From NCBI RefSeq assembly GCF_013214175.1, contig NZ_JABSPA010000002.1, positions 62,001 through 126,000 on the forward strand: 64,000 nt of DNA. The letters run 5' to 3'. This document shows, in pieces, positions 1,639 through 16,578 of the stretch (the first letter of the stretch is position 1; every line of letters begins with the position of its first letter). Source of the stretch: Colwellia sp. (GTDB lineage: Bacteria > Pseudomonadota > Gammaproteobacteria > Enterobacterales > Alteromonadaceae). The translations under genes were made by a program, and so were the position numbers. A model generated the notes under the pieces. It saw nothing but the letters and a program-made list of their open reading frames with translations. It did no database searches and was not told where the DNA came from.

Positions 1639-2910
1639 ATGACCCTTGCTAGTCAGCCAGTTCAACTCGATGTAAGTCTAATAAAAAAAGAGCCTTTACT
1701 GTTTCTTTGTCATCGAATACCTTTCCCGCCTAATAAGGGCGATAAAATACGTTCATTTAATATTCTAAAAAAATTAAGTGAACATTATGACGTGCATTTG
1801 GGTTGTTTTATCGATGACCCATTTGATAAGCAATATGTGGCAACCTTGGCTAAATATTGTGTTGCAGTGTTTCATTTAGATCAGCATAAAATACTGGCAA
1901 AAATTAAAGGCTTAACAGGCTTTATAACGAATCAGCCAATTACTCTACCTTATTATTTTGATAAACGTATGCAGCAATGGACTAATAGAACACTTACTGA
2001 GCATAATATTAGTAAGGTTTTTATTTATTCTTCTTCTATGGCGCAGTACGTGCAAAGCAAGCCCGGTAAAGATGATGAGTATCAAGTATTAGAGCGTGTG
2101 ATTGACTTTGTTGATGTCGATTCTGATAAATGGCGTCAATACGCGAATAAAAAAACCGGAATTGCTAAGTGGTTTTTTAATCGTGAATATAAGTTATTAG
2201 CGAAAGAAGAAAACTCAATTAGTGCCCAATTTACTCATAGCTTATTTGTTTCAGCGGATGAAGCACAACTATTTAGGGATAGTCAGCCACAAGCGCAACA
2301 AGCCAAAGTACATGGTTTACTTAATGGGGTAGATGTTATTTTTTTTAACCCTGCAGTCACATTTTCTGAAGAAAGCTTAGTCCCTCAGGTACCCTTTATT
2401 AGTTTTACTGGTGCTATGGATTATTGGGCAAATGTTGATGCCGTGTTGTGGTTTGTTGAACATGTTTGGCCATCAATTTTAGCCAAGCAACCCGATGCTA
2501 TTTTTTGCATTGTTGGTGGTAACCCAAGTAGTGAAGTGAGTGCTTTAGCTAAAAAGAAAGGTATTGTTGTTACGGGTCGTGTACATGATGTACGGCCTTT
2601 TATAGAGCAAGCTCAATGCGTGGTCGCGCCATTACAAATTGCCCGTGGCATTCAAAATAAAGTATTAGAAGCTATGTCTCTTAATAAAGCCATTGTTGTC
2701 ACAACGATGGCGATGGCTGGCATTAATGCCCAGCAATCTGATGGTGTCATCATCACCGATGATAGTAATGCATACGCACAAGCTTGTTTAGCATTACTCG
2801 ATGAGCAGCCAAAGGTTTTAACAAATAGACAGTGGATTTTAGATCACTTTACTTGGCAGCAAACTTTACAGCCATTAATGAATTATTTTACAGCTAAGGA
2901 AAGTCATTGA
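1639..2910 (+). CDS. Glycosyltransferase, XrtA/PEP-CTERM system-associated (TIGR03087-like)
   Basis: The product is a 423-residue GT4-type glycosyltransferase. The N-terminal block LFLCHRIPFPPNKGDKIRSF (from about residue 20) is the hallmark of the exosortase-linked sugar transferase group often called stp1. The C-terminal half has the nucleotide-sugar binding region with VVAPLQIARGIQNKVLEAM (about residues 330-348). It should act in the cytoplasm at the membrane, adding a sugar to the lipid-linked polysaccharide unit; donor and acceptor cannot be read from sequence. The start ATG at 1639 is 5 bp after femAB, and the stop TGA overlaps the xrtA start (TGATG), implying translational coupling to the exosortase. 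Confidence 0.87.
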   Translation: MTLASQPVQLDVSLIKKEPLLFLCHRIPFPPNKGDKIRSFNILKKLSEHYDVHLGCFIDDPFDKQYVATLAKYCVAVFHLDQHKILAKIKGLTGFITNQPITLPYYFDKRMQQWTNRTLTEHNISKVFIYSSSMAQYVQSKPGKDDEYQVLERVIDFVDVDSDKWRQYANKKTGIAKWFFNREYKLLAKEENSISAQFTHSLFVSADEAQLFRDSQPQAQQAKVHGLLNGVDVIFFNPAVTFSEESLVPQVPFISFTGAMDYWANVDAVLWFVEHVWPSILAKQPDAIFCIVGGNPSSEVSALAKKKGIVVTGRVHDVRPFIEQAQCVVAPLQIARGIQNKVLEAMSLNKAIVVTTMAMAGINAQQSDGVIITDDSNAYAQACLALLDEQPKVLTNRQWILDHFTWQQTLQPLMNYFTAKESH

Positions 2911-4382
2911 TGAAGATAACCGATAAACGATTTTTGGCGACCTTTTCATTACTCATTCTTACTTGGGCACTGGTTTATCAAGATGCTTTAGTGGGAATGG
3001 AAGCAATATGGTCAAGGTCGGATACTTTTGCCCATGGCTACTTTATCTTACCGATTAGCTTATGGCTTTTATGGCAAGATAAAGAAAACTTGCTACAAAG
3101 CAAGGTGCAAGCGAGTTGGTTGCCATTGCCTTTACTGGCCGTATCCTTGTTTGTAGGCTTATTCGCTTATGCTGCAGATATTAATGTCTTGAGCCAGTTA
3201 TCTGCGGTTACTTCACTGATTTTTCTACTTTGGCTGCTTATTGGTAACAAACTAGCATGGCATTATAAATTCCCATTAGCCTATTTATTGTTTGCCGTGC
3301 CTATGGGGGAGAACCTTATTCCCTGGCTGCAAGACGTAACCGCATGGTTTACCGTGTTCTTCTTGAAGTTAAATGGCATACCGGTTTACGTTGATGGCTT
3401 ATATATTCAAATACCTACTGGTATGTTTGAAGTGGCGGTTGCCTGTTCGGGTATTCGTTACTTAATCGCTTCTGCGGCGGTTGGCGCTCTATATGGGCAC
3501 TTAACCTATCAAAAAATTCATAAACAAGTCATCTTTTTTATCTTTGCTTTGTGTTTACCTATTTTAGCTAATGGTATGCGCGCATACGGCATAGTGGCAA
3601 TTGCCTATTATTCAGATATGGAGTACGCCACCGGCGCTGATCATTTGATTTATGGTTGGTTGTTTTTTGGTTTAGTCATTATGTTGATGTTCTGGATTGG
3701 TGGCTTTTTTGCTGATAAAGAGAAAAGTAGTGCCCTCACGCAGTCAAGTGAAGTTAAAAGCAATAACAACACTAAAGCTAGTTTTGGGTATTTATACAAG
3801 GTATCTGTAGTTTTTCCGTTATTTTTATTGGCTTTTTACCTGCTGCAATCCATTCCTATAATTTCAGCTGCTAGTATGGACAATGATGAAACGCTAGTCT
3901 CTTCTTGGGGGATTTCTTTTTCTGGTGCGCTAGAGAAAACTCAAATAAGTGATAATGAAGGTGTCGAACTTTTTCATGCTGTGTATGGTAATAAACAAAC
4001 TAAAGGAGAGATGATCTCCTGGGAAAATGTCACTCATGACCATGATAAATGGACAGTCGTGAGCGCTGAAGAGTTATCAATCGCTGATAAACCAGTAATG
4101 TTGGTACATCTACGTAGTGTCAATGGCCAACCAAGAAGTTATTTATATCAATATAAAGTTGGTGATTTCTACACGGTTAATGAAAATAAAGCCAAATTAA
4201 TGCAAGCATGGAATAGCTTAACTCGTCAGTCAGATATTAGTGAAGTTAGAGCTGTTTCTTTCGCGGGACAAATAGATGTGTCCGTTGCTGAAGATAAGCT
4301 TACTATGGCATTTATACAGGCGAATTTTTCTGAATTCTCGCGTGAATATCTACTAAAGGCAACCGTTAGCTATGCTAGATAA
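2910..4382 (+). CDS. xrtA: Exosortase A with fused EpsI-like C-terminal domain
   Basis: Exosortase A is an integral membrane cysteine transpeptidase that cleaves PEP-CTERM tails and sorts those proteins to the cell surface. The first 270 residues hold about eight hydrophobic segments. The expected triad is present: Cys179 in ACSGIRY, Arg224 in NGMRAYG and His245 in ADHLIYGW. After a polar linker near residue 275, one more membrane segment leads into a soluble domain of roughly 180 residues resembling EpsI/DUF3485, a fusion common in XrtA proteins. I chose ATG at 2910, which overlaps the preceding TGA and has AAGGAAA suitably upstream, rather than TTG at 2907. The gene overlaps the next glycosyltransferase by 11 bp. 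No PEP-CTERM substrate is encoded in this window. Confidence 0.95.
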   Translation: MKITDKRFLATFSLLILTWALVYQDALVGMEAIWSRSDTFAHGYFILPISLWLLWQDKENLLQSKVQASWLPLPLLAVSLFVGLFAYAADINVLSQLSAVTSLIFLLWLLIGNKLAWHYKFPLAYLLFAVPMGENLIPWLQDVTAWFTVFFLKLNGIPVYVDGLYIQIPTGMFEVAVACSGIRYLIASAAVGALYGHLTYQKIHKQVIFFIFALCLPILANGMRAYGIVAIAYYSDMEYATGADHLIYGWLFFGLVIMLMFWIGGFFADKEKSSALTQSSEVKSNNNTKASFGYLYKVSVVFPLFLLAFYLLQSIPIISAASMDNDETLVSSWGISFSGALEKTQISDNEGVELFHAVYGNKQTKGEMISWENVTHDHDKWTVVSAEELSIADKPVMLVHLRSVNGQPRSYLYQYKVGDFYTVNENKAKLMQAWNSLTRQSDISEVRAVSFAGQIDVSVAEDKLTMAFIQANFSEFSREYLLKATVSYAR

Positions 4383-8846: not shown

Positions 8847-10030
8847 TGAATATCCTCGTTTTAACGACACTCTATCCAAATAATATTCAGCACAGGCATG
8901 GCATTTTTATTGAAAATAGAGTGAAAGAACTAGTGAAGCGTTATCCTGACGCTAAGGTAAAGGTACTTGCGCCAGTGCCTTATTTTCCTACTTGGTTACC
9001 TATTAATGAATATAAGAAATATAGTGCCGTATTCGAGCAAGAAGTTCGCGCCAATATAGAGGTTTTCCATCCTAAGTATTTAGTTATACCTAAAATAGGT
9101 ATGAATATTACGCCTCATTTTTTATATAAAACATGCTTAACTAGCATTGCTGAAATTCAAGATGAAGGTTTTTCTATTGATGTAATAGATGCCCATTACT
9201 TCTATCCAGATGGTGTAGTGGCTAGTTGGATAAGTAAAAAACTGAATATACCGGTAATGGTAACGGCACGTGGTAGTGATATTAATGTTATCCCTGAAAA
9301 TAAGATTGCTAGAAAACGAATAATAAAGGCATTAATGAATATTGATGCCAGTGCAGCTGTTTCACAAGCGTTGGCTGAGGAAATGATGAAGCTTGCGCCA
9401 TTGGCTAAGCCGCCAATAGTATTAAAAAATGGAGTAGACTTAGAAGTTTTTCACCCAAAGGTGCCTAAGCCACAATTACCATTTACTTTATCTAAAGATG
9501 AAAAGCTGATTCTCAGTGTTGGTAACCTAATTGAGTTAAAAGGGCATCACCTTGTTATTGAAGCACTGGCCTTAATGCCTAATATCAAGCTGATCATTAT
9601 TGGTGAAGGTATATTGAAGGCAAAATTACAACAGCAAGTGGAAAAACTAAAATTAGCTGATAGGGTGCACTTTACGGGTAACATATTACAAAGAGAACTA
9701 CCGGGTTACTACGCCAGTGCGGACGTTTTAGTACTCGCATCCAGTAGAGAAGGGATGCCTAACGTGCTGATGGAATCCATAGCATGTGGAACACCGGTTG
9801 TTGCAACTAATGTTGGAGGTAGCAAAGAAGTAATATATTCACTAGAAGTGGGTCAGCTGCTAAATGATAGAAGTAGTAAAAGTATTGTTAAAGCGTTAAA
9901 TTCCGTTTTATCAAAAGACTTAAATAAAGAGGATATCCGGTGTTTTTCAGAGTGCTACGGCTGGGAAAAAACAACAGAGCAGCAATATCGCCAGATAAAC
10001 GAAATAGCTAATATAAAGGGTTTGTTTTAA
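8846..10030 (+). CDS. GT4-family glycosyltransferase
   Basis: The product is a 394-residue glycosyltransferase with two Rossmann halves. Visible features are the N-terminal LTTLYPNNIQHRHGIFIENR (residues 6-25), a mid-protein TARGSDINVIPE (near 140) and the donor region SSREGMPNVLMESIACGTPVV (split around residue 300) followed by ATNVGG. It probably transfers a sugar to the lipid-linked intermediate; donor and linkage are unknown. The ATG at 8846 overlaps the previous TAA by one base. The stop is followed immediately by the ATG of a 28-codon gene, suggesting continued coupling. Confidence 0.85.
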   Translation: MNILVLTTLYPNNIQHRHGIFIENRVKELVKRYPDAKVKVLAPVPYFPTWLPINEYKKYSAVFEQEVRANIEVFHPKYLVIPKIGMNITPHFLYKTCLTSIAEIQDEGFSIDVIDAHYFYPDGVVASWISKKLNIPVMVTARGSDINVIPENKIARKRIIKALMNIDASAAVSQALAEEMMKLAPLAKPPIVLKNGVDLEVFHPKVPKPQLPFTLSKDEKLILSVGNLIELKGHHLVIEALALMPNIKLIIIGEGILKAKLQQQVEKLKLADRVHFTGNILQRELPGYYASADVLVLASSREGMPNVLMESIACGTPVVATNVGGSKEVIYSLEVGQLLNDRSSKSIVKALNSVLSKDLNKEDIRCFSECYGWEKTTEQQYRQINEIANIKGLF

Positions 10031-10117
10031 ATGGATAGTTTACTTTTTGGTGTAAACATTATTTCGATTGCCTTTTTATGTTATTGGGCTGTAAAAAATG
10101 AAGGTGATGACGAATAA
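10031..10117 (+). CDS. 28-residue membrane microprotein between glycosyltransferase and O-glycosyl ligase
   Basis: This reading frame starts with ATG directly after the previous TAA and ends in TAA at 10115-10117, where the last A is also the first base of the ligase ATG (TAATG). The product, MDSLLFGVNIISIAFLCYWA followed by VKNEGDDE, has one hydrophobic helix of about 18 residues and an acidic C-terminal tail. Both junctions have the coupling arrangement used by the real genes around it, and no other frame fills the space. That is good evidence it is translated. I recognise no family. It could be a small partner of the ligase, or simply a coupling peptide that delivers ribosomes to the ligase start. 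Confidence 0.65.
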   Translation: MDSLLFGVNIISIAFLCYWAVKNEGDDE

Positions 10118-11445
10118 TGCGCGATATTTTACTGGTATTGGTTTTTCCCTTCCTTCTATATTTTATCTTTAAGCGCCCTTATATTGGTGTTTCGTTATGG
10201 ATTTGGAGCGCAATGTTTTTTCCAAATGGTTGGGTCTGGGGTTTTGCTTCATCTATACGCTACAACATGTTGATTGCAGCTGTGACTATTATTTCTTATT
10301 TTTTCCAAAAAGATAAAATAAAAACAGATAGCTCAGCTTTAACGACTTTAATTCTGTTCTTTTTTATTTTGACCACTATTTCTAGTGCTTTTACTATTTC
10401 GAACCTCGATATTGTTTGGTATGAGTGGAGCTTATTTTTTAAAATTATAATTTTTTATCTATTGTGCATTTTAACGATTAAAACCAAGCATCATGTAAAT
10501 GTATTTATTTGGGCTATTACCTTGTCGGCAGCTTATTTTGGTGCCGCAGAAGGTCTTAAATACATAATAACTGCTGGCGGCCATGTTATTGAGGGCATAC
10601 CTGGTAGTAGGCTAAGAGATAGGAATGAGCTAGCGCTTGCCGTTAATATGACTTTACCCTTAATTATTTTTTTATTGTCGCAAACAAAATATAAATGGTT
10701 AAGGTTAGCTTTGATTGGCGCAGTTATTTTTAATGTCGTGGCAATCATAGGCTCTTTCTCACGCGGCGGCATGTTAGGGTTGATTGTCATTGGTGGCTAT
10801 TTTTTCTTGCAAAGTAAACGGAAGTTACTGGTATCAATCGTTTTAATTTTAAGTGTCGGCATTGGTAGTGTCTTTGTTTCTGATAAATGGACAAATCGTA
10901 TGGATACTATAGAAACTATGGGGCAAGACTCTTCTTTTCTTGGACGAGTTGTTGCTTGGAAGCAAGCGGTATTAATGGCTGTTGACCATCCTATTTTGGG
11001 TGGCGGCTTTAAAGCAGGGCAAAACCCAAGTGTTTGGTATTTGTATGAAGATAACTTCCACAGTTTAAACTTTATTATTGATACCGGTGACTATAGAGTT
11101 TCTAGGCCAAAAGCTGCCCATAGTATTTATTTTCAAGTCTTAGGTGATCAAGGTTTTGTCGGTTTATTTACTTTTCTGGCAATTTTGTTGCTTGCTTACC
11201 GTAAGTTAGTTTGGGTGACTAAAAATACTACTGATGAATGGCTTATAGGCTTAGCGCGAATGGTCAAAGTGTCTTTAGTTGCCTATGCCGCAGGGGGGTC
11301 GGCATTAAGTTTACCTTACTTTGATCTTTCATTTGCTTTGTTTGCCCTTTGCCATATTTTATCTGAAATAGTTAAAAGGCAAAACAACAAGCACTTACTA
11401 GTTGAGCCCGCGATTAACTCTAGAAGGTATACAAATAATGTTTAG
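10117..11445 (+). CDS. Putative O-glycosyl ligase, exosortase A system-associated
   Basis: The product is a 442-residue polytopic membrane protein with about ten hydrophobic segments, of the Wzy/WaaL O-antigen-ligase superfamily. The N-terminus (MRDILLVLVFPFLLYF, then RPYIGVSLWIWSAMFFPNGW) matches the exosortase-A-linked ligase group (TIGR03097). Wzy_C features are SFSRGGMLGL (near residue 211) and the periplasmic KAAHSIYFQVLGDQG (near 331), which contains the His expected in this superfamily. It should act on the periplasmic side, polymerising repeat units or transferring glycan to protein; which of these is not known. The start is coupled to the 28-residue gene before it, and its end overlaps the next gene by 8 bp. 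Confidence 0.87.
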   Translation: MRDILLVLVFPFLLYFIFKRPYIGVSLWIWSAMFFPNGWVWGFASSIRYNMLIAAVTIISYFFQKDKIKTDSSALTTLILFFFILTTISSAFTISNLDIVWYEWSLFFKIIIFYLLCILTIKTKHHVNVFIWAITLSAAYFGAAEGLKYIITAGGHVIEGIPGSRLRDRNELALAVNMTLPLIIFLLSQTKYKWLRLALIGAVIFNVVAIIGSFSRGGMLGLIVIGGYFFLQSKRKLLVSIVLILSVGIGSVFVSDKWTNRMDTIETMGQDSSFLGRVVAWKQAVLMAVDHPILGGGFKAGQNPSVWYLYEDNFHSLNFIIDTGDYRVSRPKAAHSIYFQVLGDQGFVGLFTFLAILLLAYRKLVWVTKNTTDEWLIGLARMVKVSLVAYAAGGSALSLPYFDLSFALFALCHILSEIVKRQNNKHLLVEPAINSRRYTNNV

Positions 11446-13635: not shown

Positions 13636-15111
13636 TTGATAAAGTTGTCATCATTAAAAAATAAAGTTATCTCTGGTTTGGCTTGGTCAAGTCTAGCTAA
13701 ATTGATCGCTCAGCTATTATCATGGATAGCTACTTTTGTTGTTATACGTTATTTAAATCCGGACGATTATGCCATCGTTGGTCTAGCTTTTGCTTTTACC
13801 GGATTTTTTTATGTATTGAGTGAGTTTGGCTTAGCAGATGCATTAATACAGAAAAAGAACACCAAGGAAGAAAACTACTCACAAGTATTTAGTGCAACGT
13901 TATTATTAAATACGATTATTTTTATATTTTTTTATGGTGTAAGTGCTAGTTTTGCTGATTTTTATCAGAATAAGGCGTTGGAAGCTGTTTTACTATTTGT
14001 TGCGGCCAATTTATTACTCTCTTCGTTTATCGTTATTCCTGAAACGTTAATGAATAAAAAAATGCTCTTTAAACGAAGAGCATTGATTGAAACCTTGGCC
14101 AGTACTCTTAATACGTTGACCACCTTGGGTTTAGCGGTAACAGGTTTTGGTTACTGGTCGATTCTTATAGGACAAGCGGTAAATACGTTAAGTCGGGTAA
14201 TCTTGTTTAATAGCTTTGGTTATCATAATTATAACCTTATGTTTAATTTTAAAGGCTTTGGATCCTTATTGAATTTTGGTGGTTATACTTTTGCCTCAAG
14301 AGCTGTTTGGGCATTTTATAATAAGCTCGATATATTGATTATAGGTCGTGTTTTTGGCTCGCAATTATTGGGTGTATATACTATTGCTTTGCAATTAGCG
14401 TCTATGCCGTTAGAGAAAATATCAGGCACAATAAACCAAGTAGCTTTTTCTGCTTTTAGCCAAAATAATGATAGTAAAGAAAATGAGCAACACTTTTTAT
14501 TTTCACTTAGGCTTCTTGCCGTTGTTCTTTTTCCTGCATTTATTGGTATTGCCGCAATATCGCCTATTTTAATCCCTGTACTTATTGGCGATAAATGGCT
14601 TGAGTCCATAATTTTTATACAGTTACTCTCGTTAATCATGCCATTAAAATTAATTAGTAGTTTTGTAAATACTTTTATTGCCAGTAAAGGTGATGCAAAA
14701 TTTAACCTTAAAATGTCTTTGTTATATTTATTGTTTATTGGCGTAGGTTTAATAATAGGTAGTTATGGAGAAGTCATTGATGCGGTAATCGGTTTAGTGC
14801 TTGGTTATACGTTGTGCTTTTTAATAGTATCTTACTTTTCCATAAGTAAGTTAAGCTGTTCGTATAGGCTCTTTATAGAGTGCTTATGGCGACCTATTGT
14901 ATGTGCTTTACTTATGTGGTCAATAATTTCATTACAGCAATCTTATTATCCATTTAACCTCCATTCGTTACTAAACCTTTGCATTATGATTGTGCAAGGT
15001 GGCTTAGCTTATTCAATGTGTATATGGCTAATAGGTAGAACTCATATTAAAGATATTATGGAATTGATTTCTACTTTTCGCGTAGAAACTACTTCAAAAG
15101 GAAAGTTGTAG
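13636..15111 (+). CDS. Polysaccharide flippase (Wzx/MOP superfamily), first of two
   Basis: The product is a 491-residue membrane protein with 12-14 hydrophobic segments, of the lipopolysaccharide-exporter (WzxC/TuaB-like) branch of the MOP superfamily. The N-terminal SGLAWSSLAKLIAQLLSWIA and YLNPDDYAIVGLA blocks are typical. It should flip the undecaprenyl-linked repeat unit across the inner membrane. The start is uncertain: TTG at 13636, or TTG at 13645 which would begin MSSLKNK; neither has a convincing ribosome site. The stop at 15109-15111 is directly followed by the ATG of a second, clearly diverged flippase. Confidence 0.88.
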   Translation: MIKLSSLKNKVISGLAWSSLAKLIAQLLSWIATFVVIRYLNPDDYAIVGLAFAFTGFFYVLSEFGLADALIQKKNTKEENYSQVFSATLLLNTIIFIFFYGVSASFADFYQNKALEAVLLFVAANLLLSSFIVIPETLMNKKMLFKRRALIETLASTLNTLTTLGLAVTGFGYWSILIGQAVNTLSRVILFNSFGYHNYNLMFNFKGFGSLLNFGGYTFASRAVWAFYNKLDILIIGRVFGSQLLGVYTIALQLASMPLEKISGTINQVAFSAFSQNNDSKENEQHFLFSLRLLAVVLFPAFIGIAAISPILIPVLIGDKWLESIIFIQLLSLIMPLKLISSFVNTFIASKGDAKFNLKMSLLYLLFIGVGLIIGSYGEVIDAVIGLVLGYTLCFLIVSYFSISKLSCSYRLFIECLWRPIVCALLMWSIISLQQSYYPFNLHSLLNLCIMIVQGGLAYSMCIWLIGRTHIKDIMELISTFRVETTSKGKL

Positions 15112-16578
15112 ATGGATGCCTTAAATAAAAAAGTAGCTATCGGTGCTGGCTGGGCAATTTTTACAAGGCTTTTAGTTAAATCGTTAGGGTTAATAAGTAC
15201 AGTGATTCTAGCAAGGGTATTGGCACCTGAAGATTTTGGTGTCATAGCAATGTGCATGATCATTATTGCCTTCCTTGAGGTTTTTACTAGTTTTGGTTTT
15301 GATATAAACATTATCCAGAGGGATAAAGTTTGTAATAGGTTATTGGATTCTGCTTGGACCTTAAAGCTCGTAACGGGAGGGGTACTTACTTTAATATTAG
15401 TGGTGATAAGTGAGTATATTGGTTTATATTATGATGATACTAGACTTGTCCAATTAACTCTTGTCCTATCCTGCCTCCCCTTGATTTCTAGTTTGCAAAA
15501 TATTGGTTTTGTTTTATATCGAAAGAAGTTAGACCTGACTAAAGAGTTTCGTCTCGAGGTTGTTTCAAAGTTAGGTTCTTTCATTGCAACAATAGGCTTT
15601 GCTATTTTTTTAGAAAACTACTGGGCATTAGTTATTGGGATGTATGTAAATGCTGTTATGAAAGTAATTATGAGCTTTCTAATGCACCCTTATAGACCCC
15701 ATTTTTCTTTGGTGTATGCTCAAGAGTTATTTAAGTTCTCTAAGTGGCTTTTACTTAATAATCTACTTATCTTTTTTAATCACAAAATAACTGACTTATT
15801 TATTGGCAAGCAGTCATCAGCACAAGAATTGGGTTTTTATACTGTGGGTTATGAGATTTCAAATCTACCAACAACAGAGTTAGTTTTTCCATTAAGTAGG
15901 GCAATATTTCCCGGTTATGCAAAAATTAGAGAAGATAAATCCTTACTTAAAAAAATGTTCCTTCAATATACAACCGTCATTATATTTTTTGCCGCTCCCA
16001 TAAGCTTTGGGATAGCGGTATTATCAAAAGATATTGTTGCAATACTGCTAGGAGATAAGTGGGAGGGTGTTGAAGATATAATTTATATCTTAGCTTTTTA
16101 TGGGCTAATACGTGCATCCGTAAGTAATGCAGGAAGTGTTTTTCTTGCTATTGGTAAGCCAATGATACCAGTGGTAATCTCAACAATCAGACTAGTTCTA
16201 ATTATTCCTTTACTCTTGTTTTTGGTACCTACAAATCTTGCTGTCGGGGGAGCATGGTCAGTATTATTGGTTTCGTGTATAGTTTTTTTCATGAGTTTGG
16301 GGAGTTTAGCTTACTGTATATCTATTGACTTTAAAGAGTATTTATCTATTTTTTTACCTCCTGTTATTGTCAGCTCTATAATGTACTTTACTCTTCTTTT
16401 GCTTCAAGAAAACAGCTATTTTACAAGTAGCTTAATTATAGGCTTTATAATGCAAGTGTCTTTAGGTGCTGTCATATATTTACTGTTAATAATACTGTAT
16501 TTTCGTATATATCAAACCGAACACTTTTCATTTCAATTAATGGAAAAAATAAAGGAAATTTTAAAAGGGAAACTATGA
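15112..16578 (+). CDS. Polysaccharide flippase (Wzx/MOP superfamily), second of two
   Basis: The product has 488 residues and about 12-14 membrane segments, of the same general family as the preceding gene. The two share the layout around ARVLAPEDFGVIAM (residues 31-44), but the sequences are far apart, so this is not a recent duplication. ATG at 15112 has AAAGGAAAG at 15097-15105. The end overlaps the pyruvyltransferase-like gene by four bases (ATGA). By eye, codon use is more AT-rich here (many ATA and AGA codons) than in the XrtA core, consistent with an accessory part of the locus. The specific lipid-linked substrate is not predictable. Confidence 0.86.
   Translation: MDALNKKVAIGAGWAIFTRLLVKSLGLISTVILARVLAPEDFGVIAMCMIIIAFLEVFTSFGFDINIIQRDKVCNRLLDSAWTLKLVTGGVLTLILVVISEYIGLYYDDTRLVQLTLVLSCLPLISSLQNIGFVLYRKKLDLTKEFRLEVVSKLGSFIATIGFAIFLENYWALVIGMYVNAVMKVIMSFLMHPYRPHFSLVYAQELFKFSKWLLLNNLLIFFNHKITDLFIGKQSSAQELGFYTVGYEISNLPTTELVFPLSRAIFPGYAKIREDKSLLKKMFLQYTTVIIFFAAPISFGIAVLSKDIVAILLGDKWEGVEDIIYILAFYGLIRASVSNAGSVFLAIGKPMIPVVISTIRLVLIIPLLLFLVPTNLAVGGAWSVLLVSCIVFFMSLGSLAYCISIDFKEYLSIFLPPVIVSSIMYFTLLLLQENSYFTSSLIIGFIMQVSLGAVIYLLLIILYFRIYQTEHFSFQLMEKIKEILKGKL

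What the first reader, a model, noticed from the sequence alone, without database searches (positions are those of the whole stretch)
10031..10117. 28-residue membrane microprotein coupled to the O-glycosyl ligase
A 28-codon frame exactly fills the space between a glycosyltransferase and the XrtA-linked ligase. Its ATG follows one stop directly and its own stop overlaps the next start (TAATG), the coupling style of the surrounding real genes. The product is one hydrophobic helix plus an acidic tail. Below normal annotation cut-offs, it would be missed. It may be a ligase subunit or a coupling peptide.
Basis: partly seen in the sequence, partly recalled or inferred. Interest (0 to 1): 0.65.

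Follow-up and report, generated by a model that had tools for sequence, protein, structure and literature searches.

The report
Conserved one-helix partner of sugar ligase
A 28-amino-acid membrane protein, below usual gene-finding size limits, sits directly before a bacterial sugar-ligase gene and is kept, as protein, in every examined member of one branch of these ligases, so it is probably a dedicated small subunit of that enzyme.

Summary
A 28-codon ORF (10031-10117) lies between a GT4 glycosyltransferase and a TIGR03097 ligase in an exosortase A (XrtA) cluster; its stop overlaps the ligase start. It is a real gene. Of 180 ligase loci on a tree, 109 carry such an ORF (26-86 aa, median 28: one helix, charged tail) and 71 do not; the 109 are exactly one side of one branch (SH-aLRT 98). 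Five were recognised only on a second reading; one fixed rule applied to all 180 finds 104 of 109 and 2 of 71. In 295 genomes the 64 strongest profile hits all lie beside such a ligase. Codons show purifying selection (pN/pS 0.25; shifted frames 0.86, 1.67). Shine-Dalgarno-like motifs precede 57 of 80 starts, against 116 of 1805 control ATGs. Presence follows ligase type, not genus or upstream gene. No Pfam or NCBIfam model matches the window protein. Most likely it is an obligate one-helix subunit stabilising or activating a WaaL-fold ligase. The genetic partnership is strongly supported; binding and activation are inferred; no expression data exist. A pure coupling leader is unlikely.

The parts
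10031..10117 (+). microprotein gene, 28 aa, one predicted membrane helix (about residues 3-20), charged C-terminal tail; stop overlaps the ligase start
10015..10020 (+). AAAGGG, Shine-Dalgarno-like site 10 nt before the microprotein ATG, inside the end of the glycosyltransferase gene
   Evidence: sequence; group statistics
10101..10106 (+). AAGGTG, Shine-Dalgarno-like site for the ligase, inside the microprotein's tail codons
   Evidence: sequence; group statistics
10117..11445 (+). XrtA-associated putative O-glycosylation ligase (TIGR03097; Pfam Wzy_C + DUF5935), proposed partner of the microprotein
   Evidence: WaaL fold of the near relative L023:
8846..10030 (+). GT4 glycosyltransferase upstream; in relatives the gene in this place can instead be an AMP-dependent acyl-CoA ligase (L033, L036, L065), so not the constant partner
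2907..4382 (+). exosortase A (XrtA), marks the cluster

Best explanation
The ORF encodes a genuine membrane microprotein that is the dedicated, probably obligate, small subunit of one clade of XrtA-associated WaaL-fold ligases. It is translated between the upstream gene and the ligase by tight coupling, so that it is made with the enzyme and inserted beside it, with the short acidic N-terminus in the periplasm and the charged tail in the cytoplasm. Its single helix most likely packs on the ligase as an extra helix, stabilising or activating the enzyme, as the helix of PBP2 does for the fold-related polymerase RodA. Shown here: coding selection, gene order, one-clade association and charge asymmetry. 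Inferred: binding, stoichiometry and the activating or stabilising role.
For: Presence follows one ligase clade: 109 of 109 inside, 0 of 71 outside, one change on the tree, split support 98; a fixed rule applied to all loci gives 104 of 109 and 2 of 71. In six genera that hold both kinds of locus, each locus falls on the matching side of the ligase tree. The 64 best profile hits in 295 genomes are all beside such a ligase. pN/pS is 0.248 (bootstrap 0.195-0.300) against 0.86 and 1.67 in shifted frames. Shine-Dalgarno-like motif before 57 of 80 starts against 116 of 1805 control ATGs. Kept whether the upstream gene is a glycosyltransferase (window, L067) or an AMP-dependent acyl-CoA ligase (L033, L036, L065). 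C-tail richer in K/R in 97 of 109, tie in 12. A near relative's ligase has the WaaL fold (Z 22.1) with FtsW and RodA next, and RodA is stimulated by a fused PBP2 helix alone (passages of PMC10449877).
Against: No expression, binding or phenotype data. The predicted model gave no coordinates or contacts, so docking could not be read. The covariation test was uninformative. No residue is invariant. The other 71 ligase loci do without it, so the fold does not need it in general. Five of the 109 were assigned only on a second reading, and several divergent members (for example L040, L073, L074, L165-L168) match the others by place and make-up rather than by a significant profile hit.
Confidence: 0.74

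Rival explanations
1. A leader or coupling ORF: only its translation matters, delivering ribosomes to the ligase start; the peptide is a by-product.
For: Stop overlaps or touches the ligase start in most loci (end of stop relative to ligase start: +1 in 38 of 80, +4 in 16, +8 in 7, 0 in 6), and the upstream stop overlaps the ORF start in 39 of 80.
Against: Strong selection on amino acids; a recurring helix and N-terminal motif; 24 of 66 ligases without the ORF overlap the upstream gene directly and 21 more lie within 15 nt, so no extra ORF is needed; in L163 the ORF ends 72 nt before the ligase.
Confidence: 0.08
2. A real microprotein whose main partner is another cluster member (glycosyltransferase, flippase, XrtA) or that acts as a regulator, placed before the ligase for co-expression.
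For: All 85 of 295 genomes with the ligase (both types) also have XrtA, 81 within 40 kb, so other possible partners are nearby.
Confidence: 0.11
3. A detached piece of the ligase: the ORF and ligase are joined by programmed frameshift or stop read-through, or it replaces a helix that other ligases carry fused (as DltX does for MBOAT enzymes).
For: The ORF and ligase touch in one frame in 6 of 80 loci.
Against: The relative frame varies (62, 11 and 7 of 80). The predicted membrane helices of a ligase without the ORF correspond in order to those of a ligase with it, so none is missing; the WaaL alignment leaves the microprotein outside.
Confidence: 0.03
4. A membrane-targeting leader that brings the message or ribosomes to the membrane ahead of the ligase.
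For: The message of the 27-aa protein YohP goes to the membrane independently of translation (abstract of PMC7549839).
Against: The ligase begins with its own hydrophobic helix; ligases without the ORF manage; the protein sequence is constrained.
Confidence: 0.04

Closest known systems
RodA-PBP2 / FtsW-FtsI (SEDS polymerase with a one-helix partner)
   Same: Fold-related polytopic polymerases (Z 10.7-13.4 to our model); the one PBP2 helix packs on RodA TM8 and TM9 and, fused without the rest of PBP2, stimulates it (PMC10449877, passages).
   Different: PBP2 and FtsI carry a large enzyme domain outside and, as recalled, insert the other way round; the microprotein is a bare helix; the enzyme is a WaaL-type ligase.
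DltX, membrane microprotein of the MBOAT enzyme DltB
   Same: Small membrane protein that works with a polytopic membrane transferase (passages of PMC12148441).
   Different: DltX carries a shuttle motif near its extracellular C-terminus and supplies a part that other MBOATs have fused; here the C-terminus is predicted inside, no residue is invariant, and no helix is missing from the relatives.
WaaL O-antigen ligase (PDB 7tpg)
   Same: Fold of the partner ligase (Z 22.1, 368 residues aligned, rmsd 5.0).
   Different: The alignment does not include the microprotein; the listings of searches showed no paper on a small subunit of WaaL.
Ost4, 36-residue subunit of yeast oligosaccharyltransferase (recalled)
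   Same: Tiny one-helix subunit of a lipid-linked-oligosaccharide transferase.
   Different: Different enzyme family; not compared here.

Membership tests
TIGR03097 XrtA-associated ligase (the partner gene) | score over the curated cut-off | tested here: met
   473.5 bits against 188.1
WaaL-fold ligases (the partner gene) | overall fold | tested here: met
   read-through model of relative L023: Foldseek E 4.5e-6, VIA Z 22.1 to 7tpg
DltX (PF12459) | profile match | tested here: not met
   none for the window protein at E<=1; 2 of 61 members match, best E 0.023
DltX (PF12459) | extracellular C-terminal shuttle motif | tested here: not met
   no invariant column; C-tail predicted inside by charge
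CydS (PF22282) | profile match | tested here: not met
   no match for the window protein; 9 of 61 members match weakly, best E 8.4e-4, cut-off not printed
CydS (PF22282) | encoded with cytochrome bd genes | tested here: not met
   64 of 64 strong hits beside the ligase
any NCBIfam or Pfam family | match of the window protein | tested here: not met
   none. Among 60 other members scanned as an alignment only weak matches appear, cut-offs not printed; among 8 divergent members scanned singly all matches are below cut-off, nearest PspB on one, 23.3 against 25.6 bits
one-helix partners of SEDS polymerases | physical docking on the enzyme | not testable with these tools
   the model gives no coordinates; helix pLDDT 79-85, linker 57-66

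The most novel reading that the evidence does not exclude
The first accessory subunit of a WaaL/Wzy_C-type ligase: a lone membrane helix that switches on or shapes a polysaccharide ligase, gained (or lost) once in ligase evolution, carried with the enzyme between species and even classes of Proteobacteria, and overlooked because it is under 50 residues long in most species.
Probability: 0.55. Interest if true: 0.75.

Novelty: new variant of a known kind. Interest (0 to 1): 0.63.

Why it matters
One-helix microprotein subunits are known for several membrane enzymes (oxidases and transporters recalled; DltX in PMC12148441), but my searches listed none for WaaL-type ligases. This one comes with an unusually clean natural experiment: related ligases with and without it, sometimes in the same genus. 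That makes it testable whether a bare helix can control a lipid-linked glycan ligase, and it gives the poorly understood XrtA/PEP-CTERM surface system a possible missing part. It also shows that a gene under 30 codons can be identified with confidence from comparative data.

Tried and rejected
Programmed fusion of the two ORFs: rejected, the relative frame varies. Missing-helix replacement: rejected, the same membrane helices are predicted in order with and without the ORF; the models differ only at the start of the first helix (low confidence in the read-through model) and in a short helix at its C-terminal end. A catalytic or shuttle residue: none invariant. Free-standing copies: none among hits with E <= 5.7e-5; the next five hits (E 6e-4 to 5e-3) are not beside a ligase. 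More distant Wzy_C ligases from related genomes: 6 of 6 fetched have no such ORF.

Led nowhere: residue covariation between microprotein and ligase (109 pairs, about 86 effective) was uninformative. The first ligase profile was seeded with wrong ORFs and discarded. The first joint alignment put the ligase's first helix on the microprotein columns and was not used; the second used most ligase rows cut after that helix, so the low confidence at the start of the ligase in the model may be an artefact. In VIA-align's list no well-scoring row reaches model residues 1-43, which is not evidence of absence.

Literature searches listed nothing on a small ORF before an XrtA-linked or WaaL ligase; the library is open-access only. 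Seen as passages: PMC12148441, PMC1569441, PMC10920833, PMC13390465, PMC10449877. Seen as outline with abstract: PMC7549839, PMC12457691. Whether RefSeq annotates any of these ORFs could not be checked.

Rows dropped before counts: L164 (ligase without a start, although its genome has the ORF about 220 nt before the ligase match); L201 (contig starts inside the ligase); three matches that were partial or below cut-off and not fetched; the ten loci below the family cut-off (L041-L050; L043 and L044 read, no such ORF; the rest only scanned, four of them on the wrong strand). Two hydrophobic ORFs flagged by the rule (L086, L118) were rejected by me for lack of any resemblance.

Mended on checking: the branch support of the 109-row split is 98; a value of 89 printed belonged to another branch after re-rooting. 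The upstream acyl-CoA ligases were first named by eye and then tested.

Full report
OBSERVATION. The frame exists exactly as described: glycosyltransferase stop at 10028-10030, ATG at 10031, stop at 10115-10117 overlapping the ligase ATG at 10117. The ligase is a TIGR03097 member (473.5 bits, cut-off 188.1) with Pfam Wzy_C and DUF5935, in a cluster with exosortase A and other XrtA-associated genes. The window protein matches no Pfam or NCBIfam model.

FIRST CONSERVATION TEST. A protein search in 61 related genomes (the window's own included) gave nine other matches with E below 1e-3, all nine directly upstream of a TIGR03097 ligase found by a separate search of the same genomes. Reading upstream of the ligases showed a similar short frame even where sequence similarity had become low. 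The preceding gene varies: GT4 glycosyltransferase in the window and L067, AMP-dependent acyl-CoA ligase in L033, L036 and L065 (four upstream genes tested; families below their curated cut-offs).

SURVEY. I gathered 149 ligase loci from searches of relatives, order, family and class; the genomes are drawn evenly from larger groups, not exhaustive. One (L164, ligase without a start) was dropped. By profile, by a hydrophobic-ORF rule and by my reading, 80 carried a 26-49 aa one-helix ORF just before the ligase, 66 did not, and two were unclear. On a ligase tree the label changed once (shuffled mean 48.3). Reading the two unclear loci showed such an ORF in both. A separate scan of named genomes with a ligase alignment returned 80 loci: 47 repeated earlier ones, one was truncated, 32 were new. 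Of the new ones 24 were positive by profile, three more on reading (L246, L254, L255) and five negative. On the tree of all 180 the split between the 109 positives and the 71 negatives is a single branch with SH-aLRT support 98, and one change suffices. The 109 ORFs are 105 different peptides. Because five positives (L162, L163, L246, L254, L255) were assigned on a second look, I applied one fixed rule, written after seeing the family but the same for all 180: it finds 104 of 109 and 2 of 71 (L118, L176), and with the N-terminal motif required 99 of 109 and 0 of 71. The tree is a quick one. Next to the clade, L171 and five alphaproteobacterial ligases lack the ORF. Gain once, or ancestral presence with loss, cannot be told apart without a root.

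RANGE. Positive organisms by record title include Colwellia, Thalassotalea, Rheinheimera, Alishewanella, Aliiglaciecola, Paraglaciecola, Bowmanella, Haliea, Chromatocurvus, Kineobactrum, one Vibrio sp., and Undibacterium, Rhodoferax, Burkholderiales and Rhodospirillales metagenome bins. Six of 68 genera contain both kinds of locus, and each locus falls on the matching side of the ligase tree. Named alpha- and betaproteobacterial forms are longer (44-86 aa), except that of Undibacterium (37 aa).

SPECIFICITY. A profile of 61 members run over 295 whole genomes gave 64 hits with E at most 5.7e-5, and all 64 lie beside a TIGR03097 ligase (in G551 about 220 nt from a broken one); the next five hits are elsewhere and weak. 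Many of these 64 are in the profile, so the count of finds is partly circular, but the absence of free-standing copies is not. Of the 295 genomes, 85 have the ligase at E <= 1e-50; 21 of these 85 gave no such hit, being either ligases without the ORF or divergent forms that the profile misses. All 85 have XrtA over its cut-off, 81 of them within 40 kb. Sixty-one further genomes have XrtA but not this ligase, and none holds a strong hit. Six distant Wzy_C ligases from relatives had no such ORF.

CODING EVIDENCE. In 25 pairs of related loci (each locus used once; first two codons and last codon left out) pN/pS is 0.248 (bootstrap 0.195-0.300), and changes fall 147, 70 and 275 on codon positions 1, 2 and 3. 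The same DNA read in the two shifted frames gives 0.86 and 1.67. Several pairs are saturated at synonymous sites and the pairs' tree paths were not checked for overlap, so the corrected ratio 0.14 is rough. A Shine-Dalgarno-like 4-mer precedes 57 of 80 microprotein starts and 61 of 80 ligase starts, against 116 of 1805 ATGs inside the ligase genes.

ANATOMY. Among 109 members the N-terminal tails together hold 4 K/R and 48 D/E; the 12 residues after the most hydrophobic stretch hold 200 K/R and 315 D/E; 97 of 109 have more K/R on the C side and 12 tie. By the positive-inside rule (general knowledge) the N-terminus is outside. An acidic residue near the start followed by a hydrophobic one is present in 103 of 109. 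No column of the 61-row alignment is invariant, which fits packing rather than catalysis. The stop overlaps or touches the ligase start in most loci, with the frame relation varying (62, 11, 7 of 80), against a conserved fusion.

PARTNER. Ligases with and without the ORF differ at strongly conserved positions (window ligase numbering): with it K148 in 107 of 109 and E145 in 93 of 109; without it K144 in 71 of 71 and G145 in 70 of 71. Those with it also mostly have an insertion around residues 305-328, ahead of the shared His335. So the ORF marks a remodelled ligase type. A model of L023 read through the stop (mean pLDDT 90.6; microprotein helix 79-85, linker 57-66) has the WaaL fold (Z 22.1 to 7tpg over residues 44-451), with FtsW and RodA at Z 10.7-13.4. 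The microprotein lies outside that alignment. A model of a ligase without the ORF (L027) has the same membrane helices in order, apart from the low-confidence start of the first and a short C-terminal extra in L023, so the microprotein is an added helix. Contacts could not be read, and the covariation test was uninformative.

MECHANISM. The most economical reading is a dedicated one-helix subunit. The precedent is close in fold: the PBP2 helix, fused without the rest of PBP2, stimulates RodA and packs on its TM8 and TM9 (passages of PMC10449877). DltX is a precedent for a microprotein built into a membrane transferase (passages of PMC12148441), but its defining features are not met. Shown: real coding gene, exclusive neighbourhood, likely topology. 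Inferred: binding, one-to-one ratio, stabilising or activating role. A pure coupling leader explains the overlap but not the amino-acid selection, and most ligases lacking the ORF abut the upstream gene without it (45 of 66).

NOVELTY. No family model matches the window protein, and the literature searches listed no mention. One-helix subunits are a known kind; this is a new family and, as far as found, the first for a WaaL-type ligase.

Noticed in passing
   Followed up: partly
window 10117-11445 (ligase residues 144-148 and 305-328): Ligases with the microprotein mostly have E145/K148 where the others have K144/G145, and carry an insertion before His335: perhaps a different donor or acceptor.
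   Followed up: partly
L164 (G551): The ligase appears broken (match begins at profile position 59, one stop inside) while a good microprotein ORF remains upstream.
   Followed up: no
L163 upstream of the ligase: The microprotein ends 72 nt before the ligase, with a second short hydrophobic ORF between them.
   Followed up: no
window 13636-15111 and 15112-16578: Two MOP-family flippase-like genes stand in tandem, one directly after the other.
   Followed up: no
   Followed up: partly
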